64,000 bases of DNA from assembly GCA_937928165.1 (NCBI GenBank), contig CALFVT010000009.1:124001-188000 (forward strand). Reading direction: 5' to 3'. The notes beneath the pieces were generated by a model. That model did not search any database and was not told where the DNA came from. It was given only the letters and a program-made list of their open reading frames with translations. Position numbers and translations under genes: made by a program. Positions 57,803 to 60,713 of the stretch are shown here, piece after piece. Each line of letters begins with the position of its first letter. The first letter of the stretch is position 1. The DNA comes from an uncultured Caulobacterales bacterium. GTDB lineage: Bacteria; Pseudomonadota; Alphaproteobacteria; Caulobacterales; Maricaulaceae.

Positions 57803-58897
57803 TTGGTTAAAATTTGGTCAGATGCGCAGATTAAGACGCTTCGCGCGCAGCTTTTGGACTGGTATGACCGTATGGGCCGAGCCTTGCCGTGGCGGGTGCG
57901 CCCCGAAGACCGCGCAAAAGGACAAATGCCTGACCCTTACGCCGTATGGCTATCGGAGATTATGCTTCAGCAAACGACTGTGCCTCATGCAGCCCCTTAT
58001 TGGGAGAAATTTTTGCGCGAATTTCCAAAAGTGACTGATCTGGCGCAGGCCGACCGAGAGCAAGTTATGGTGATGTGGGCCGGGCTTGGGTATTACGCGC
58101 GGGCACGAAACCTTTATAAATGCGGGCAAGTGATCGCTGATGATTACGGCGGGGTGTTCCCGCAAAGCGAGGCGGAGCTGCTGAGGCTGCCGGGCATTGG
58201 GCCTTATACGGCAGCGGCTATTGCGGGGATTTGTTTTGATGAACCCACAGTGGTGGTCGACGGTAATGTCGAACGGGTCATAAGCCGCATGGCTTGTGTT
58301 GATGTGCCTTTGCCCAAAGGAAAAAAAGAGATCAAAGCCGTGGCCGCGCAAATCGCCGACCCAAAGCGGTCAGGAGATTACTCCCAAGCCCTAATGGATT
58401 TAGGGGCGACAGTCTGCACGCCGCGCAGCCCGAAATGCCATATCTGTGTCTGGGCGGATTTTTGTACTGCCCATAAACGAGGGGAGGAAGAACGCTATCC
58501 GAAAAAGCTCAAGAAAAAACCCTTGCCGAAGCGCTGCGGCGTTGTCTTTGTGCTGCGCGGCGCGGGACATGTGCTGTTAAGGCAGCGGCCTGATGAGGGC
58601 TTGCTTGGGGGCATGGTGGATTTTCCGGGGACTGAATGGACAAATTCGCCGCCAGACTCGATGTTAAACTATGCTCCTCATTCGGCTGATTGGGCCCGCG
58701 CCCCGCAGCAAGTTGTTCACGTCTTCACCCATTTTGAATTGACGCTGGATATTTATACGGCGGATGTGGGTGACCTTGACGTGCTGAAAATGGCCGCATC
58801 AAAAGCGGATGATTTATTCATTGAAGCCGAGGCAAAACTGAAAACCCTCGCCCTGCCAAGTGTCATGCAAAAAGTCTGGCGCAGTGTTTTGGGTTAG
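57803..58897 (+). CDS. mutY: A/G-specific adenine glycosylase
   Basis: 364-residue DNA glycosylase removing A opposite 8-oxoguanine. TTG 57803 is the only plausible start because a stop lies in frame at 57782-57784. Helix-hairpin-helix LPGIGPYTAAAIAG (about 129-142), catalytic Glu52 (SEIMLQQTTV) and Asp153 (VVDGNVERV), and a 4Fe-4S cluster with Cys205, 212, 215, 221 (C-x6-C-x2-C-x5-C) are all present. The C-terminal NUDIX-like domain (about 245-360; VFVLRGAGHVLLRQRPDEGLLGGM) recognises 8-oxoG. Divergent from the DciA-like gene. Confidence 0.96.
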   Translation: MVKIWSDAQIKTLRAQLLDWYDRMGRALPWRVRPEDRAKGQMPDPYAVWLSEIMLQQTTVPHAAPYWEKFLREFPKVTDLAQADREQVMVMWAGLGYYARARNLYKCGQVIADDYGGVFPQSEAELLRLPGIGPYTAAAIAGICFDEPTVVVDGNVERVISRMACVDVPLPKGKKEIKAVAAQIADPKRSGDYSQALMDLGATVCTPRSPKCHICVWADFCTAHKRGEEERYPKKLKKKPLPKRCGVVFVLRGAGHVLLRQRPDEGLLGGMVDFPGTEWTNSPPDSMLNYAPHSADWARAPQQVVHVFTHFELTLDIYTADVGDLDVLKMAASKADDLFIEAEAKLKTLALPSVMQKVWRSVLG

Positions 58898-58947
58898 TTT
58901 TGGATTATTAATTTGCTATGCTCAAACTCTGACTTGTAAAAGTAAAT

Positions 58948-59048
58948 AGATTCCCGCTTTCGCGGGAATGGACGGATCTTTATGGTTTTAGCTCATTCAA
59001 TTTAGCATCATCACTTTCTCCCGTACATTCCCGCGTAGGCGGGAATCT
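58948..59048. repeat. palindromic repeat unit 1 (dRS3/REP-like)
   Basis: A 101-bp unit bounded by AGATTCCCGC and GCGGGAATCT, themselves inverted. Each end is a short hairpin: ATTCCCGCTTTCGCGGGAAT on the left and ATTCCCGCGTAGGCGGGAAT on the right, both fitting ATTCCC-N8-GGGAAT. The core (TTATGGTTTTAGCTCATTC and on) is not palindromic. No reading frame of note. Confidence 0.85.
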
Positions 59049-59072
59049 CTCGCATAGGTGTTTCGGTGTTAT

Positions 59073-59174
59073 AGATTCCCGCTTTCGCGGGAATGGACGG
59101 AGTTTTATGGTTCTAGCTCATTCAATTTAGCATCATCACCTTCCCCCGTGCAGTCCCGCGAAGGCGGGAATTTC
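59073..59174. repeat. palindromic repeat unit 2 (dRS3/REP-like)
   Basis: Direct copy of unit 1 after a 24-bp unrelated spacer. By my count about nine mismatches in 101 bp, roughly 91% identity. The left end hairpin is identical; the right end reads AGTCCCGCGAAGGCGGGAAT, one base off the 20-bp pattern. Confidence 0.85.
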
Positions 59175-59231
59175 TAGATTGGAGCTTTTGACGCCTTGCA
59201 TCCCCGCCGTAATACATCCCTGTGAAAACAT

Positions 59232-59371
59232 GGACGGGAATGGACGGAGTTTTATGGTTTTGGATAATTCAATCTCATCTTAAATGGGAGTTGAATATAC
59301 TGTGTTTCGGTTCATTTAATTCGGCACTTAACATCCCTATCCACCGTGCATTCCCGCGAAAGCGGGAATCT
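59232..59371. repeat. degenerate repeat unit 3
   Basis: Diverged relative: left part GGGAATGGACGGAGTTTTATGG matches the units (degenerate left hairpin), followed by about 45 bp not found in units 1 and 2, then a recognisable core (CATTTAATTCGGCACTTAACATC) and an intact right hairpin ATTCCCGCGAAAGCGGGAAT (59350-59369). Together the 58898-59483 gap of 586 bp contains these repeats and no gene I can support. Confidence 0.65.
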
Positions 59372-59483
59372 ATTGCATGCGTTAACCTGCATAATTTCCT
59401 CTCATAATCTCATTCCGTATAAAAACAGAGCGGCGGGTGAGTTTGGCCTTTTAAAACAGGGGCGCAAGGCTTATGGCTCGGTT

Positions 59484-60713
59484 ATGAAACTTGATCCTAA
59501 AACTCATGCTTGGCTGACTGATGATGCGGCGCAAAGCTTGTTTGCGGCCTTTCCAGACGGGAGCCTTCGCTTTGTCGGCGGCTGTGTGCGTAATGCGCTT
59601 TTGGGGCATGAGGCGGGCGATATTGATCTGGCCGTACAGCTTGAACCGCCTGTGGTCATGGCGGCGCTCACGGGCGCGGGGATACGCTATGTTGAAACAG
59701 GTCTGGCCCATGGTACACTAACGGCGGTGATCAAAGGCGTGCCCTATGAGATCACATCTTTACGCCGCGATGTGGAAACCGATGGCCGCCGCGCTGTTGT
59801 GAGTTTTACAAAAGATTGGGCCGAGGATGCCCAGCGCCGCGACCTCACAATCAATGCCCTCTACGCGGATATGTCGGGGCAAATATTTGACCCTTGCGGT
59901 GAGGGGATAGGCGACATTCAGGCGGGCCGCCTTCGTTTTGTTGGAGAGGCGCAGGCCCGTATCCGTGAAGATTATCTCCGGCTTTTGCGCTATTTTCGTT
60001 TCACCGCATGGTATGGAGGCGATAAGCCTTTGGATAAAGATGCGCTTTCAGCGGCGCGGGATTTGCAATTTGGCCTTAAAACCCTCTCTGCAGAACGGGT
60101 ATGGGCGGAGCTTAAGAAATTACTGACTGCGCCCGACCCGTCCCGCGCTGTTCGAATTATGGGGCAAAACGGAATTTTAGACACGCTTCTGCCCGAAGCG
60201 AGTAATAGTGATGGTCTTGATCTTTACACGGCCCTAGAGCGCCGCGAAGGCTTTGCGCCTGACCCCCTCCTGCGGCTTATGGCGATGAGCGCTCGCGATT
60301 CCTTGCAAATTAGGCGGCTTACCGAGCGGCTTAAAATGTCCAAGGCAGAGGCGGCGCGGCTACGGGGCTGGGCAGATGATGGCTCGGCCCTTGATCCTTA
60401 TGCGGATGAGCGCGAGACATTTCAGACGTTTTACAAAGCGGGGAAAGAGGCCATTATTGACCGCGCGCGCATCCGCGCTGCCGGAGAACCAGATGTGATT
60501 AAATCCGCCCACTGGATAAGCTTTGCGGATAAGGCGGCGAATTGGATAAGGCCGGAGTTTCCGCTGACGGGTAAAGACCTAAAAGCGGCAGGCGTTGAAC
60601 CCGGCCCCGCCATGGGGCGAGCGATGAAAGCTCTTGAAGCGCTCTGGCTGCGATCGGGCTTTATGGCGGATAAGGATAAGCTCTTAACGGCGCTCAAAAT
60701 GTTTGGTATGTAA
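59484..60713 (+). CDS. cca: CCA tRNA nucleotidyltransferase
   Basis: 409-residue class II nucleotidyltransferase/poly(A) polymerase family protein that builds or repairs tRNA 3'-CCA. Start ATG 59484 gives MKLDPKTHAWLTDD; the frame extends upstream into repeat unit 3, which would translate as an artefactual leader. Motifs: RFVGGCVRNALLG (about 29-41), catalytic DID (Asp46, Asp48), RRDLTINALYAD (about 119-130) and REDYLRLLRYFRFTAWYG. Full length. TerB-like and cutA genes follow closely (26 and 2 bp). Confidence 0.94.
   Translation: MKLDPKTHAWLTDDAAQSLFAAFPDGSLRFVGGCVRNALLGHEAGDIDLAVQLEPPVVMAALTGAGIRYVETGLAHGTLTAVIKGVPYEITSLRRDVETDGRRAVVSFTKDWAEDAQRRDLTINALYADMSGQIFDPCGEGIGDIQAGRLRFVGEAQARIREDYLRLLRYFRFTAWYGGDKPLDKDALSAARDLQFGLKTLSAERVWAELKKLLTAPDPSRAVRIMGQNGILDTLLPEASNSDGLDLYTALERREGFAPDPLLRLMAMSARDSLQIRRLTERLKMSKAEAARLRGWADDGSALDPYADERETFQTFYKAGKEAIIDRARIRAAGEPDVIKSAHWISFADKAANWIRPEFPLTGKDLKAAGVEPGPAMGRAMKALEALWLRSGFMADKDKLLTALKMFGM

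What the first reader, a model, noticed from the sequence alone, without database searches (positions are those of the whole stretch)
58948..59371. Cluster of three ~100-bp palindromic units with ATTCCC-N8-GGGAAT ends
Two near-identical direct units and one degenerate unit lie between mutY and cca. Each intact unit has a 20-bp hairpin at both ends fitting ATTCCC-N8-GGGAAT, the same consensus as Neisseria dRS3 repeats (known targets for filamentous phage integration there) and similar to REP-like sequences in other proteobacteria. The paired outward hairpins around a constant core look like a mobile non-autonomous unit (REP doublet/BIME or MITE) rather than simple duplication. No other copy was noticed elsewhere in the window.
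Basis: partly seen in the sequence, partly recalled or inferred. Interest (0 to 1): 0.6.

Follow-up and report, generated by a model that had tools for sequence, protein, structure and literature searches.

The report
REP palindrome cluster with nuclease partner
A small cluster of hairpin-forming DNA repeats between two bacterial genes belongs to a known repeat family scattered through the genome, and the same kind of repeat flanks a tiny DNA-cutting enzyme gene in many bacteria, which may be the long-missing enzyme that spreads them.

Summary
Between mutY and cca lie two 105-bp units (91% alike) and one decayed unit, each built of two inverted ATTCCCGC-N4-GCGGGAAT hairpins. They are not unique: the 2.61-Mb genome has 29 exact hairpins against 0 for the pattern read backwards. 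They are CGTC-type REPs, the family to which Neisseria dRS3 has been assigned (PMC3733652). The expected RAYT is absent: the only Y1 transposase found is a short IS200-type one with no REP beside it. The new part is a partner. Small GIY-YIG nuclease genes are flanked by such REPs: here at C15 on both sides; in 33 of 58 sampled alphaproteobacterial loci against 20 of 324 control genes; in 13 of 14 non-alpha but only 3 of 13 alpha loci of a second sample; in N. gonorrhoeae within a dRS3-type array. In Azospirillum lipoferum a REP-GIY-REP cassette splits sufB from sufC; four congeners lack it. I propose that this nuclease drives the spread of CGTC REPs, which a 2013 paper said lacked an enzyme. 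Activity is untested. A 2025 paper on Ssn nucleases, known to me only from memory, may already cover part of this.

The parts
58946..59050 (.). REP heterodimer unit 1 (heads inward, tails outward)
   Evidence: family D1 (105 nt, 2 copies, 91%); dimer C9_182950
58948..58975 (-). REP arm A1: CCGTCC-ATTCCCGCGAAAGCGGGAAT-CT, read on the minus strand
58976..59020 (.). core of unit 1, alike only in units 2 and (in part) 3 of this locus
59021..59048 (+). REP arm B1: CCGTAC-ATTCCCGCGTAGGCGGGAAT-CT; its reverse complement fits, by my reading, the Nf1 subtype of dRS3 given in PMC3898611 (ATTCCCRCCTRCGCGGRAAK)
59071..59175 (.). REP heterodimer unit 2
59073..59100 (-). REP arm A2: CCGTCC-ATTCCCGCGAAAGCGGGAAT-CT
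59101..59145 (.). core of unit 2 (89% like core 1)
59146..59173 (+). REP arm B2, one mismatch in the stem (AGTCCC), tail TT
59198..59375 (.). decayed unit 3: left hairpin lost, core remnant 59235-59273 (90% like unit 2), right arm intact
   Evidence: families D2 and D3
59344..59371 (+). REP arm B3: CCGTGC-ATTCCCGCGAAAGCGGGAAT-CT
57803..58897 (+). context: mutY (named by reading the translation and by the finding); its stop lies 52 bp before the first hairpin
59484..60713 (+). context: cca (named by reading and by the finding); the longer GTG-started ORF from 59346 only reads through REP B3

Best explanation
The cluster is a small BIME of CGTC-type REPs (kin of Neisseria dRS3): two intact and one decayed head-inward heterodimer. 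It arose when one REP dimer settled between mutY and cca and was then duplicated locally, with ends at the REP tails. REPs of this superfamily are the partner sites of small (~95 aa) GIY-YIG nucleases, whose genes often lie between such REPs as REP-GIY-REP cassettes. Proposed working: the nuclease recognises and cuts the tagged hairpin in single-stranded DNA (lagging-strand template, or incoming DNA), and repair or recombination at the cut copies REP dimers, and now and then the whole cassette, to new intergenic sites. Shown here: anatomy, copy number, physical linkage, presence/absence of dimers and of one cassette between related species. Inferred: recognition, cutting, and that cutting drives copying.
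For: Copies: 29 exact hairpins, control 0; 55 BLAST matches to the unit, many of single arms. Anatomy: 65 of 69 hairpins could be oriented; adjacent pairs within 150 bp are 21 head-inward, 10 tail-inward, 2 same-direction; 19 of 21 head-inward dimers pair one arm with C at the fifth head base (CCGTCC-like) with one without. Unit copying: shared cores between loci. Linkage in the own genome: C15 gene between two like dimers (core 84%); C18 gene with a REP at its stop codon; C16 gene with its own REP type, 5 exact matches in the genome, one of them at the gene. Sampled loci: 33 of 58 against 20 of 324 control genes, p 1.8e-18, GTC first of 64 possible tags; noncoding density 2.69 against 0.27 REPs per kb; 13 of 14 non-alpha loci (no control counted there). 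Across 289 genomes, 11 of 16 with at least 5 standard REP matches (cut-off chosen after seeing the counts) carry the gene against 71 of 273 others, p 7e-4, relatedness not corrected. Named cases: N. gonorrhoeae homologue (46% identical to P0001) among 16 CGTC REPs in 3.3 kb; A. lipoferum; Rhizobium sp. CIAT894. Occupied/empty: A. lipoferum 617 bp between sufB and sufC against 55-129 bp in four congeners; 11 other Azospirillum records match on both sides but not in the middle. G174 against G274: of 6 REP sites in G174, 5 are absent from G274 and 1 is shared, none the other way, in 62.6 kb of aligned blocks (three stem-loops without a CCA-like tail, one in G174 and two in G274, were set aside).
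Against: 25 of 58 sampled loci have no strict REP within 300 bp. In the phylum sample only 3 of 13 alpha loci have one, and none of the four loci from the own order; the one GIY locus of REP-rich G028 that was looked at has none (of 3 matches in that genome). 5 of 16 REP-rich genomes have no GIY match at 1e-15, one of them with 105 REP matches. G133, one of two genomes with the L133 REP type, has no GIY match in that search. REP loop class does not follow the GIY tree (9 changes, shuffled mean 11.1, 44 and 50 of 500 as low). The own C8 gene shows no clear REP; the C17 and C2 palindromes were judged by eye and missed by the strict scan. No target duplication was seen at the Azospirillum site. 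A GIY-YIG domain cuts but is not known to rejoin DNA (recalled). The window's own REPs have one base more between tag and stem than the standard form and score 0 with the standard pattern. No genome of the same genus was among the 40 relatives, so no empty site for this very cluster could be shown.
Confidence: 0.6

Rival explanations
1. REPs and GIY-YIG nuclease work as a regulator of single-stranded DNA (uptake, transformation, replication), not as a mobile element: the enzyme cuts incoming or exposed ssDNA at the repeats, and REPs are kept for that use. Linkage exists because enzyme and sites are co-selected.
For: Recalled, not read: Chenal et al., Nat Commun 2025, on Ssn GIY-YIG enzymes of Neisseria acting on ssDNA repeats and modulating transformation. 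The N. gonorrhoeae homologue lies in a dRS3-type array.
Against: Presence/absence of dimers and of one cassette between close species, patchy spread among relatives (7 of 41), and several genes per genome with different REP types look like turnover of selfish units.
Confidence: 0.25
2. GIY-YIG genes are passengers: small dispensable genes that happen to survive in REP-rich intergenic DNA, while REPs are moved by something else.
For: Many GIY loci lack strict REPs (25 of 58; 10 of 13 alpha loci); 5 of 16 REP-rich genomes lack the gene at 1e-15.
Against: Ten-fold REP density in noncoding DNA next to the genes compared with other noncoding DNA of the same regions; minimal cassettes with the same REP a few bases from both gene ends (L133), that stem being found in 2 of 289 genomes.
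Confidence: 0.12
3. REPs are moved by a Y1 (HUH) transposase: a RAYT, or in trans by the IS200-type TnpA.
For: RAYTs are held to mobilise GTAG REPs in other bacteria (PMC3733652, abstract and sections; PMC2817692, start of abstract in a listing). One IS200-type gene is present.
Against: No REP near that gene. Among 41 genomes, those with Y1 matches (own, G008, G028, G032, G038) overlap with those holding the exact hairpin (own, G011, G012, G013, G028, G033, G040) only in own and G028.
Confidence: 0.05
4. The cluster is a product of local tandem duplication and serves as a transcription terminator or mRNA stabiliser of mutY, with no mobility.
For: Two near-identical units side by side; stable fold.
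Against: Dispersed copies; the stretches between units are unlike. Of 25 REP clusters with both neighbours called, 6 lie between divergent genes. The terminator-like match of the scan is on the other strand and not above chance.
Confidence: 0.1

Closest known systems
CGTC-1 REP family (Di Nocera et al. 2013, PMC3733652)
   Same: 8-bp stem starting with AT, 4-nt loop, tag at one end, opposite-orientation pairs, intergenic; the paper reports CGTC REPs mostly in alphaproteobacteria and equates Neisseria CGTC-1 with dRS3
   Different: One extra base between tag and stem (CCGT[C/G/A]C-ATT); tail CT[C/T/A] instead of CCA; head-inward pairs are nearly all heterodimers, which the paper reports as the only form in two CGTC-1 species, homodimers prevailing in the family
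Neisseria dRS3 / NIME arrays (PMC3898611, passages)
   Same: 20-bp core ATTCCC(N8)GGGAAT; arm B1 reversed fits the Nf1-target subtype
   Different: Tens of copies here against 646-725 in meningococcal genomes; no filamentous phage was sought here
GTAG REPs with RAYT (REPtron, REPIN)
   Same: Inverted REP doublets; an enzyme gene flanked by its REPs; several gene/REP types in one genome
   Different: Tag CGTC-like, not GTAG; the linked enzyme is a GIY-YIG nuclease, not a Y1 HUH transposase
Ssn GIY-YIG ssDNA nucleases (Chenal et al. 2025; recalled, not held in the library)
   Same: The N. gonorrhoeae relative of P0001 lies in a dRS3-type array
   Different: Whether that paper reports REP-GIY-REP cassettes, occupied/empty sites or the link to CGTC REPs could not be checked

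Membership tests
CGTC-1 REP superfamily | 8-bp stem beginning AT, 4-nt loop | tested here: met
CGTC-1 REP superfamily | terminal unpaired tag CGTC (or TGTC, CCTC) at one end | tested here: inconclusive
   CCGTCC 25, CCGTGC 20, CCGTAC 5 of 65 oriented REPs (orientation itself was set by likeness to CCGTCC); CGTC is there in the first type but one base away from the stem, so the standard pattern finds 0
CGTC-1 REP superfamily | short unpaired tail, mostly CCA | tested here: not met
   CT-starting tails 54 of 65, CCA 2 of 65
CGTC-1 REP superfamily | many dispersed intergenic copies, pairs in opposite orientation | tested here: met
   29 exact copies; 31 of 33 adjacent pairs in opposite orientation
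dRS3 | ATTCCC(N8)GGGAAT | tested here: met
   4 exact and 1 one-mismatch hairpins in the window; definition in PMC3898611
dRS3 | target of filamentous phage Nf1 integration | not tested
   no prophage or Piv/IS110 search was made
RAYT-mobilised GTAG REP | GTAG tag | tested here: not met
RAYT-mobilised GTAG REP | RAYT gene flanked by the REPs | tested here: not met
   the only Y1_Tnp match is IS200-type, no REP near it; the assembly is a draft of 96% completeness
MITE | conserved internal core across the genome | tested here: not met
   cores alike only in small groups
MITE | target-site duplication | tested here: inconclusive
   none obvious by eye in the G174/G274 gaps or at sufB-sufC; no congener for the window cluster
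Ssn-like GIY-YIG nuclease | small protein with GIY-YIG domain | tested here: met
   PF01541 E 2.9e-16; invariant Y, R, H, E, N columns (their catalytic role is recalled)
Ssn-like GIY-YIG nuclease | cuts single-stranded DNA at the repeat | not testable with these tools
   needs purified protein; the feature itself is recalled

The most novel reading that the evidence does not exclude
CGTC-tagged REPs, dRS3 included, and small GIY-YIG nucleases form a widespread class of minimal mobile elements of about 0.35-0.6 kb in Pseudomonadota, REP-GIY-REP, with dispersed REP dimers as their non-autonomous forms. They move without any known transposase or recombinase: a sequence-specific ssDNA nuclease cuts its own terminal hairpins and host repair does the copying. 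This would fill the gap stated in 2013 that CGTC REPs lack a dedicated enzyme.
Probability: 0.4. Interest if true: 0.8.

Novelty: new variant of a known kind. Interest (0 to 1): 0.6.

Why it matters
REPs are among the commonest repeats of bacterial genomes. For the GTAG half an enzyme has been proposed (RAYT); for the CGTC half, dRS3 included, the 2013 survey found none (PMC3733652). A gene that sits between such repeats in alpha-, beta- and other proteobacteria, with an occupied/empty pair in Azospirillum, gives a concrete candidate that can be tested with one purified protein and a few oligonucleotides. If it works as proposed, many genes annotated only as 'GIY-YIG nuclease family protein' are selfish or domesticated elements, and nuclease-plus-repair would be a way for very small DNA units to spread.

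Tried and rejected
RAYT/Y1 transposase as mover: one IS200-type gene, no REPs near it; presence across relatives hardly follows the REPs. Constant-core MITE: cores differ between loci. Known RNA family: in 58700-59600 only three matches of E 0.3-1, all far below their gathering scores. Terminator: one match, on the other strand, not above chance. Empty site for the window cluster in relatives: in 19 named cca loci (Hellea, Maricaulis, Caulobacter and others; 19 of 41 matched stretches) tblastn with mutY at 1e-10 found nothing in the fetched DNA (up to 3 kb each side), so the junction has no counterpart there. Coevolution of REP loop class with the GIY tree: not significant; own_C18 was labelled by hand and own_C16 dropped as a tie, leaving 40 labelled rows of 62. 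Empty site of the GIY cassette in G274: not clean, another small module stands there. Synteny of GIY loci between congeners (14 comparisons): some neighbourhoods shared, others not; not used, because genomes hold several such genes and the best hits need not be orthologues. Paper searches for a GIY-YIG/REP link: two term pairs gave 0 papers (GIY-YIG with 'repetitive extragenic palindromic'; GIY-YIG with dRS3); the others gave capped lists in which I saw no such paper by title and start of abstract. The Ssn paper is not held (by a DOI guessed from memory). PMC6006769 and PMC12306157 were seen only as passages.

Full report
What is there. Between mutY (57803-58897) and cca (start ATG 59484) lie two 105-bp units, 58946-59050 and 59071-59175, 91% identical, and a decayed third whose last hairpin ends at 59369, tail at 59371. 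Each intact unit is a pair of inverted hairpins, arm A on the minus strand (CCGTCC-ATTCCCGCGAAAGCGGGAAT-CT) and arm B on the plus strand (CCGT[A/G]C-A[T/G]TCCCGC-N4-GCGGGAAT), heads inward. Five hairpins fit ATTCCCGC-N4-GCGGGAAT with at most one mismatch; none was found in 100 shuffles. With the looser six-base ends and two mismatches the count is not above chance. Likeness between the two units stops at the REP tails: the 20-nt stretches after them differ. Folded as single-stranded DNA, the two arms pair with each other in one long stem.

How common it is. The host genome (2.61 Mb, 26 contigs, 96% complete) has 29 exact hairpins, and 0 for the pattern read backwards, and 55 BLAST matches to the unit, many of single arms. 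In 22 stretches fetched round these matches (about 193 kb, not a complete census) 69 hairpins with up to 3 mismatches were listed and 65 oriented by likeness of the head to CCGTCC. Adjacent pairs within 150 bp: 21 heads-inward, 10 tails-inward (nine spaced 45-48 bp, one 84), 2 same-direction. 19 of 21 heads-inward dimers join one arm with C at the fifth head base with one arm without. 'Head' here means the tag end; whether this equals the HH of the 2013 paper was not checked. Two dimers at contig ends (C4, C13) have the same core and may be one locus counted twice.

What moves. I compared the inner cores of 22 dimers (231 pairs; the second C15 dimer was added by hand). Nine pairs exceed every shuffled pair (null maximum 0.67, one shuffle per pair): the suspected C4/C13 duplicate, two same-locus pairs (C9, the window; C15) and six between loci (C4-C23, both near contig ends; C2-C21; C5-C21; C18-C26; C2-C18; C2-C20). 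The outer 40-nt flanks of these eight are 0.47-0.75 alike; no formal baseline was made, but the next seven pairs of the list show 0.40-0.70. So dimers with their cores appear to have been copied as units, in small subfamilies; a single constant core does not exist. REP clusters lie between co-directional (11), convergent (8) and divergent (6) genes among the 25 of 31 clusters with both neighbours called.

Relatives. Of 41 genomes (own and 40 relatives) 7 have the exact hairpin: own 29, G028 45, G040 13, G013 4, three others 1 each. None of the 40 was of the same genus. In 19 named cca loci (19 of 41 matched stretches, mostly Caulobacterales and kin) mutY was not found near cca, so the mutY-cca junction has no counterpart to compare.

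Enzyme. PF01797 finds one Y1 transposase, 136 aa, IS200-like by reading, with no REP in the fetched 3.4 kb. While calling genes near the REPs I saw a 96-aa GIY-YIG protein (P0001; PF01541 2.9e-16) at C15:20882 between two like REP dimers, and another at C18 whose stop codon touches a REP. PF01541 gives 7 matches in the genome: UvrC (so taken from its length, 638 aa) and six small genes. Besides C15 and C18, the C16 gene has CCGCTC-ATCCCAGC REPs; C17 has TGTC-ATTCCG palindromes and C2 CCTCATCCTGAGG palindromes (these two by eye); C8 has none. The C16 REP type has 5 exact matches in the genome, one of them at the gene.

Test on a wider sample. A profile of four own GIY proteins (A1) finds matches at 1e-15 in 82 of 289 alphaproteobacterial genomes, own included. 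I fetched the best locus of each of 60 of the other 81, in order of score; the gene was recovered as an ORF in 58. A [CT]GTC-AT...AT stem-loop lies within 300 bp in 33 of 58, against 20 of 324 control genes (ORFs of at least 120 aa, more than 700 bp away, same regions; odds ratio 20, p 1.8e-18). Of all 64 three-base tags GTC ranks first, and second is TGG, the reverse of the CCA tail. In noncoding DNA the density is 66 per 24.5 kb near the genes and 26 per 96.6 kb elsewhere. The nearest REP points its tag away from the gene in 32 of 49 cases (p 0.044), and 7 of 13 loci with a REP within 150 bp on both sides have the inverted pair with tags outward. The clearest is L133: TGTC-ATACCGAC-GCAA-GTCGGTAT-CCAG, five bases, the gene, and the same REP inverted just past the stop. 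That stem, any loop, occurs in 2 of 289 genomes: G149 (4, two of them at the gene) and G133 (2, a genome without a GIY match at 1e-15). In a phylum sample (101 of 398 genomes positive) 28 loci were looked at, 27 with an ORF: 16 of 27 have a tagged REP, 13 of 14 non-alpha but only 3 of 13 alpha, and none of four from the own order; no control genes were counted there. Genomes with at least 5 standard CGTC-REP matches carry the gene in 11 of 16 cases, others in 71 of 273 (p 7e-4, cut-off chosen afterwards, relatedness not corrected). REP loop class against the GIY tree is not significant.

Named cases. P0001 finds 34 plasmid-collection records. I looked at four of them. The N. gonorrhoeae homologue (a chromosome-sized record) lies among 16 CGTC REPs in 3.3 kb, that is, in a dRS3-type array; Rhizobium sp. 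CIAT894 has REPs on both sides; A. lipoferum 4B (A. lipoferum is named as CGTC-positive in the 2013 paper) has three strict REPs and one imperfect arm, on both sides of the gene, which stands between sufB and sufC; the Planktothrix record has no strict REP. For sufB-sufC I compared four other records: A. ramasamyi, A. oryzae, Azospirillum sp. B510 and A. thermophilum have 91, 87, 129 and 55 bp there, A. lipoferum 617 bp, and the surplus is REP dimer, gene, REP dimer. A fifth record (A. brasilense) was fetched but not aligned; in all, 11 other Azospirillum records match both sides and not the middle. No target duplication is evident.

Congeners G174 and G274. In 62.6 kb of aligned blocks, 6 REP sites of G174 were seen: 5 fall in gaps of the alignment and are absent from G274, 1 is shared (one strict arm found in G274), and none is present in G274 only. 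Three stem-loops without a CCA-like tail (one in G174, two in G274) were set aside as chance, and two REPs of G274 lie outside the aligned part. Absence may be insertion in one or deletion in the other; no third genome was used. At the GIY site G274 holds another module, so that site is not a clean empty one.

Reading. The window feature is a member of the CGTC REP superfamily with a changed tag and tail. Di Nocera et al. [quoted passage not shown] They looked at transposase genes. The linkage shown here points instead to a nuclease. From memory only, Chenal et al. (Nat Commun 2025) described Ssn, GIY-YIG enzymes that cut single-stranded DNA at a Neisseria repeat and affect transformation. If their repeat is dRS3, the enzyme-site pair is known for Neisseria, and what is added here is its generality, the cassette architecture and the occupied/empty sites. 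How cutting leads to copying is inference; GIY-YIG enzymes are not known to join DNA (recalled).

Noticed in passing
L217:16619-17180 (G274:C2:318619-319180): Where G174 has the REP-GIY cassette, G274 has, between genes that read as folA and thyA, two small overlapping ORFs that read like a BrnT/BrnA toxin-antitoxin pair (by eye, no family search).
   Followed up: partly
L249:1300-2010 (Planktothrix agardhii plasmid p1): A GIY-YIG gene between MmeI and DISARM drmA has TGTCATTCTGAG...-type repeats on both sides, so a tagged-repeat neighbourhood may reach beyond proteobacteria; the strict scan found no REP there.
   Followed up: no
L098 (G000:C2:389953): A second kind of small GIY-YIG gene (UPF0213-like by reading) is flanked by CCCTCATCCTGAGGAGGCC...-type palindromes.
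   Followed up: no
L094:1345-1734: The C16 GIY-YIG reading frame runs into its flanking REP, which encodes the protein's last residues (DPSFRWDERTS).
   Followed up: no
L049, L050, L056, L061, L066, L067 (own contigs C4, C13, C19, C23, C26): Several contigs of the own assembly end in or near REP clusters; the C19 end overlaps the C4 start by 45 and the C13 end by 50 nt, so REPs probably broke the assembly.
   Followed up: partly
window 58897-59484: mutY was not found near cca in the 19 named relatives looked at. The REP cluster may mark a rearrangement junction.
   Followed up: partly
genome G117: The control (pattern read backwards) of the CGTC search hits 16+16 times in this one genome, so it probably holds an unrelated palindromic repeat family.
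   Followed up: no
L212, L213 and L214 (G174:C16 near 28757, 56052 and 60458): A second repeat type, made of CCCTCTCCC/GGGAGAGGG and CCCTCACCC/GGGTGAGGG motifs, also marks gaps between G174 and G274.
   Followed up: no
L046:1405-1890 (G000:C7): An IS200-type tnpA with a long hairpin before the gene and a CTACCGAC hairpin after it; the only Y1 transposase match found in this genome.
   Followed up: partly
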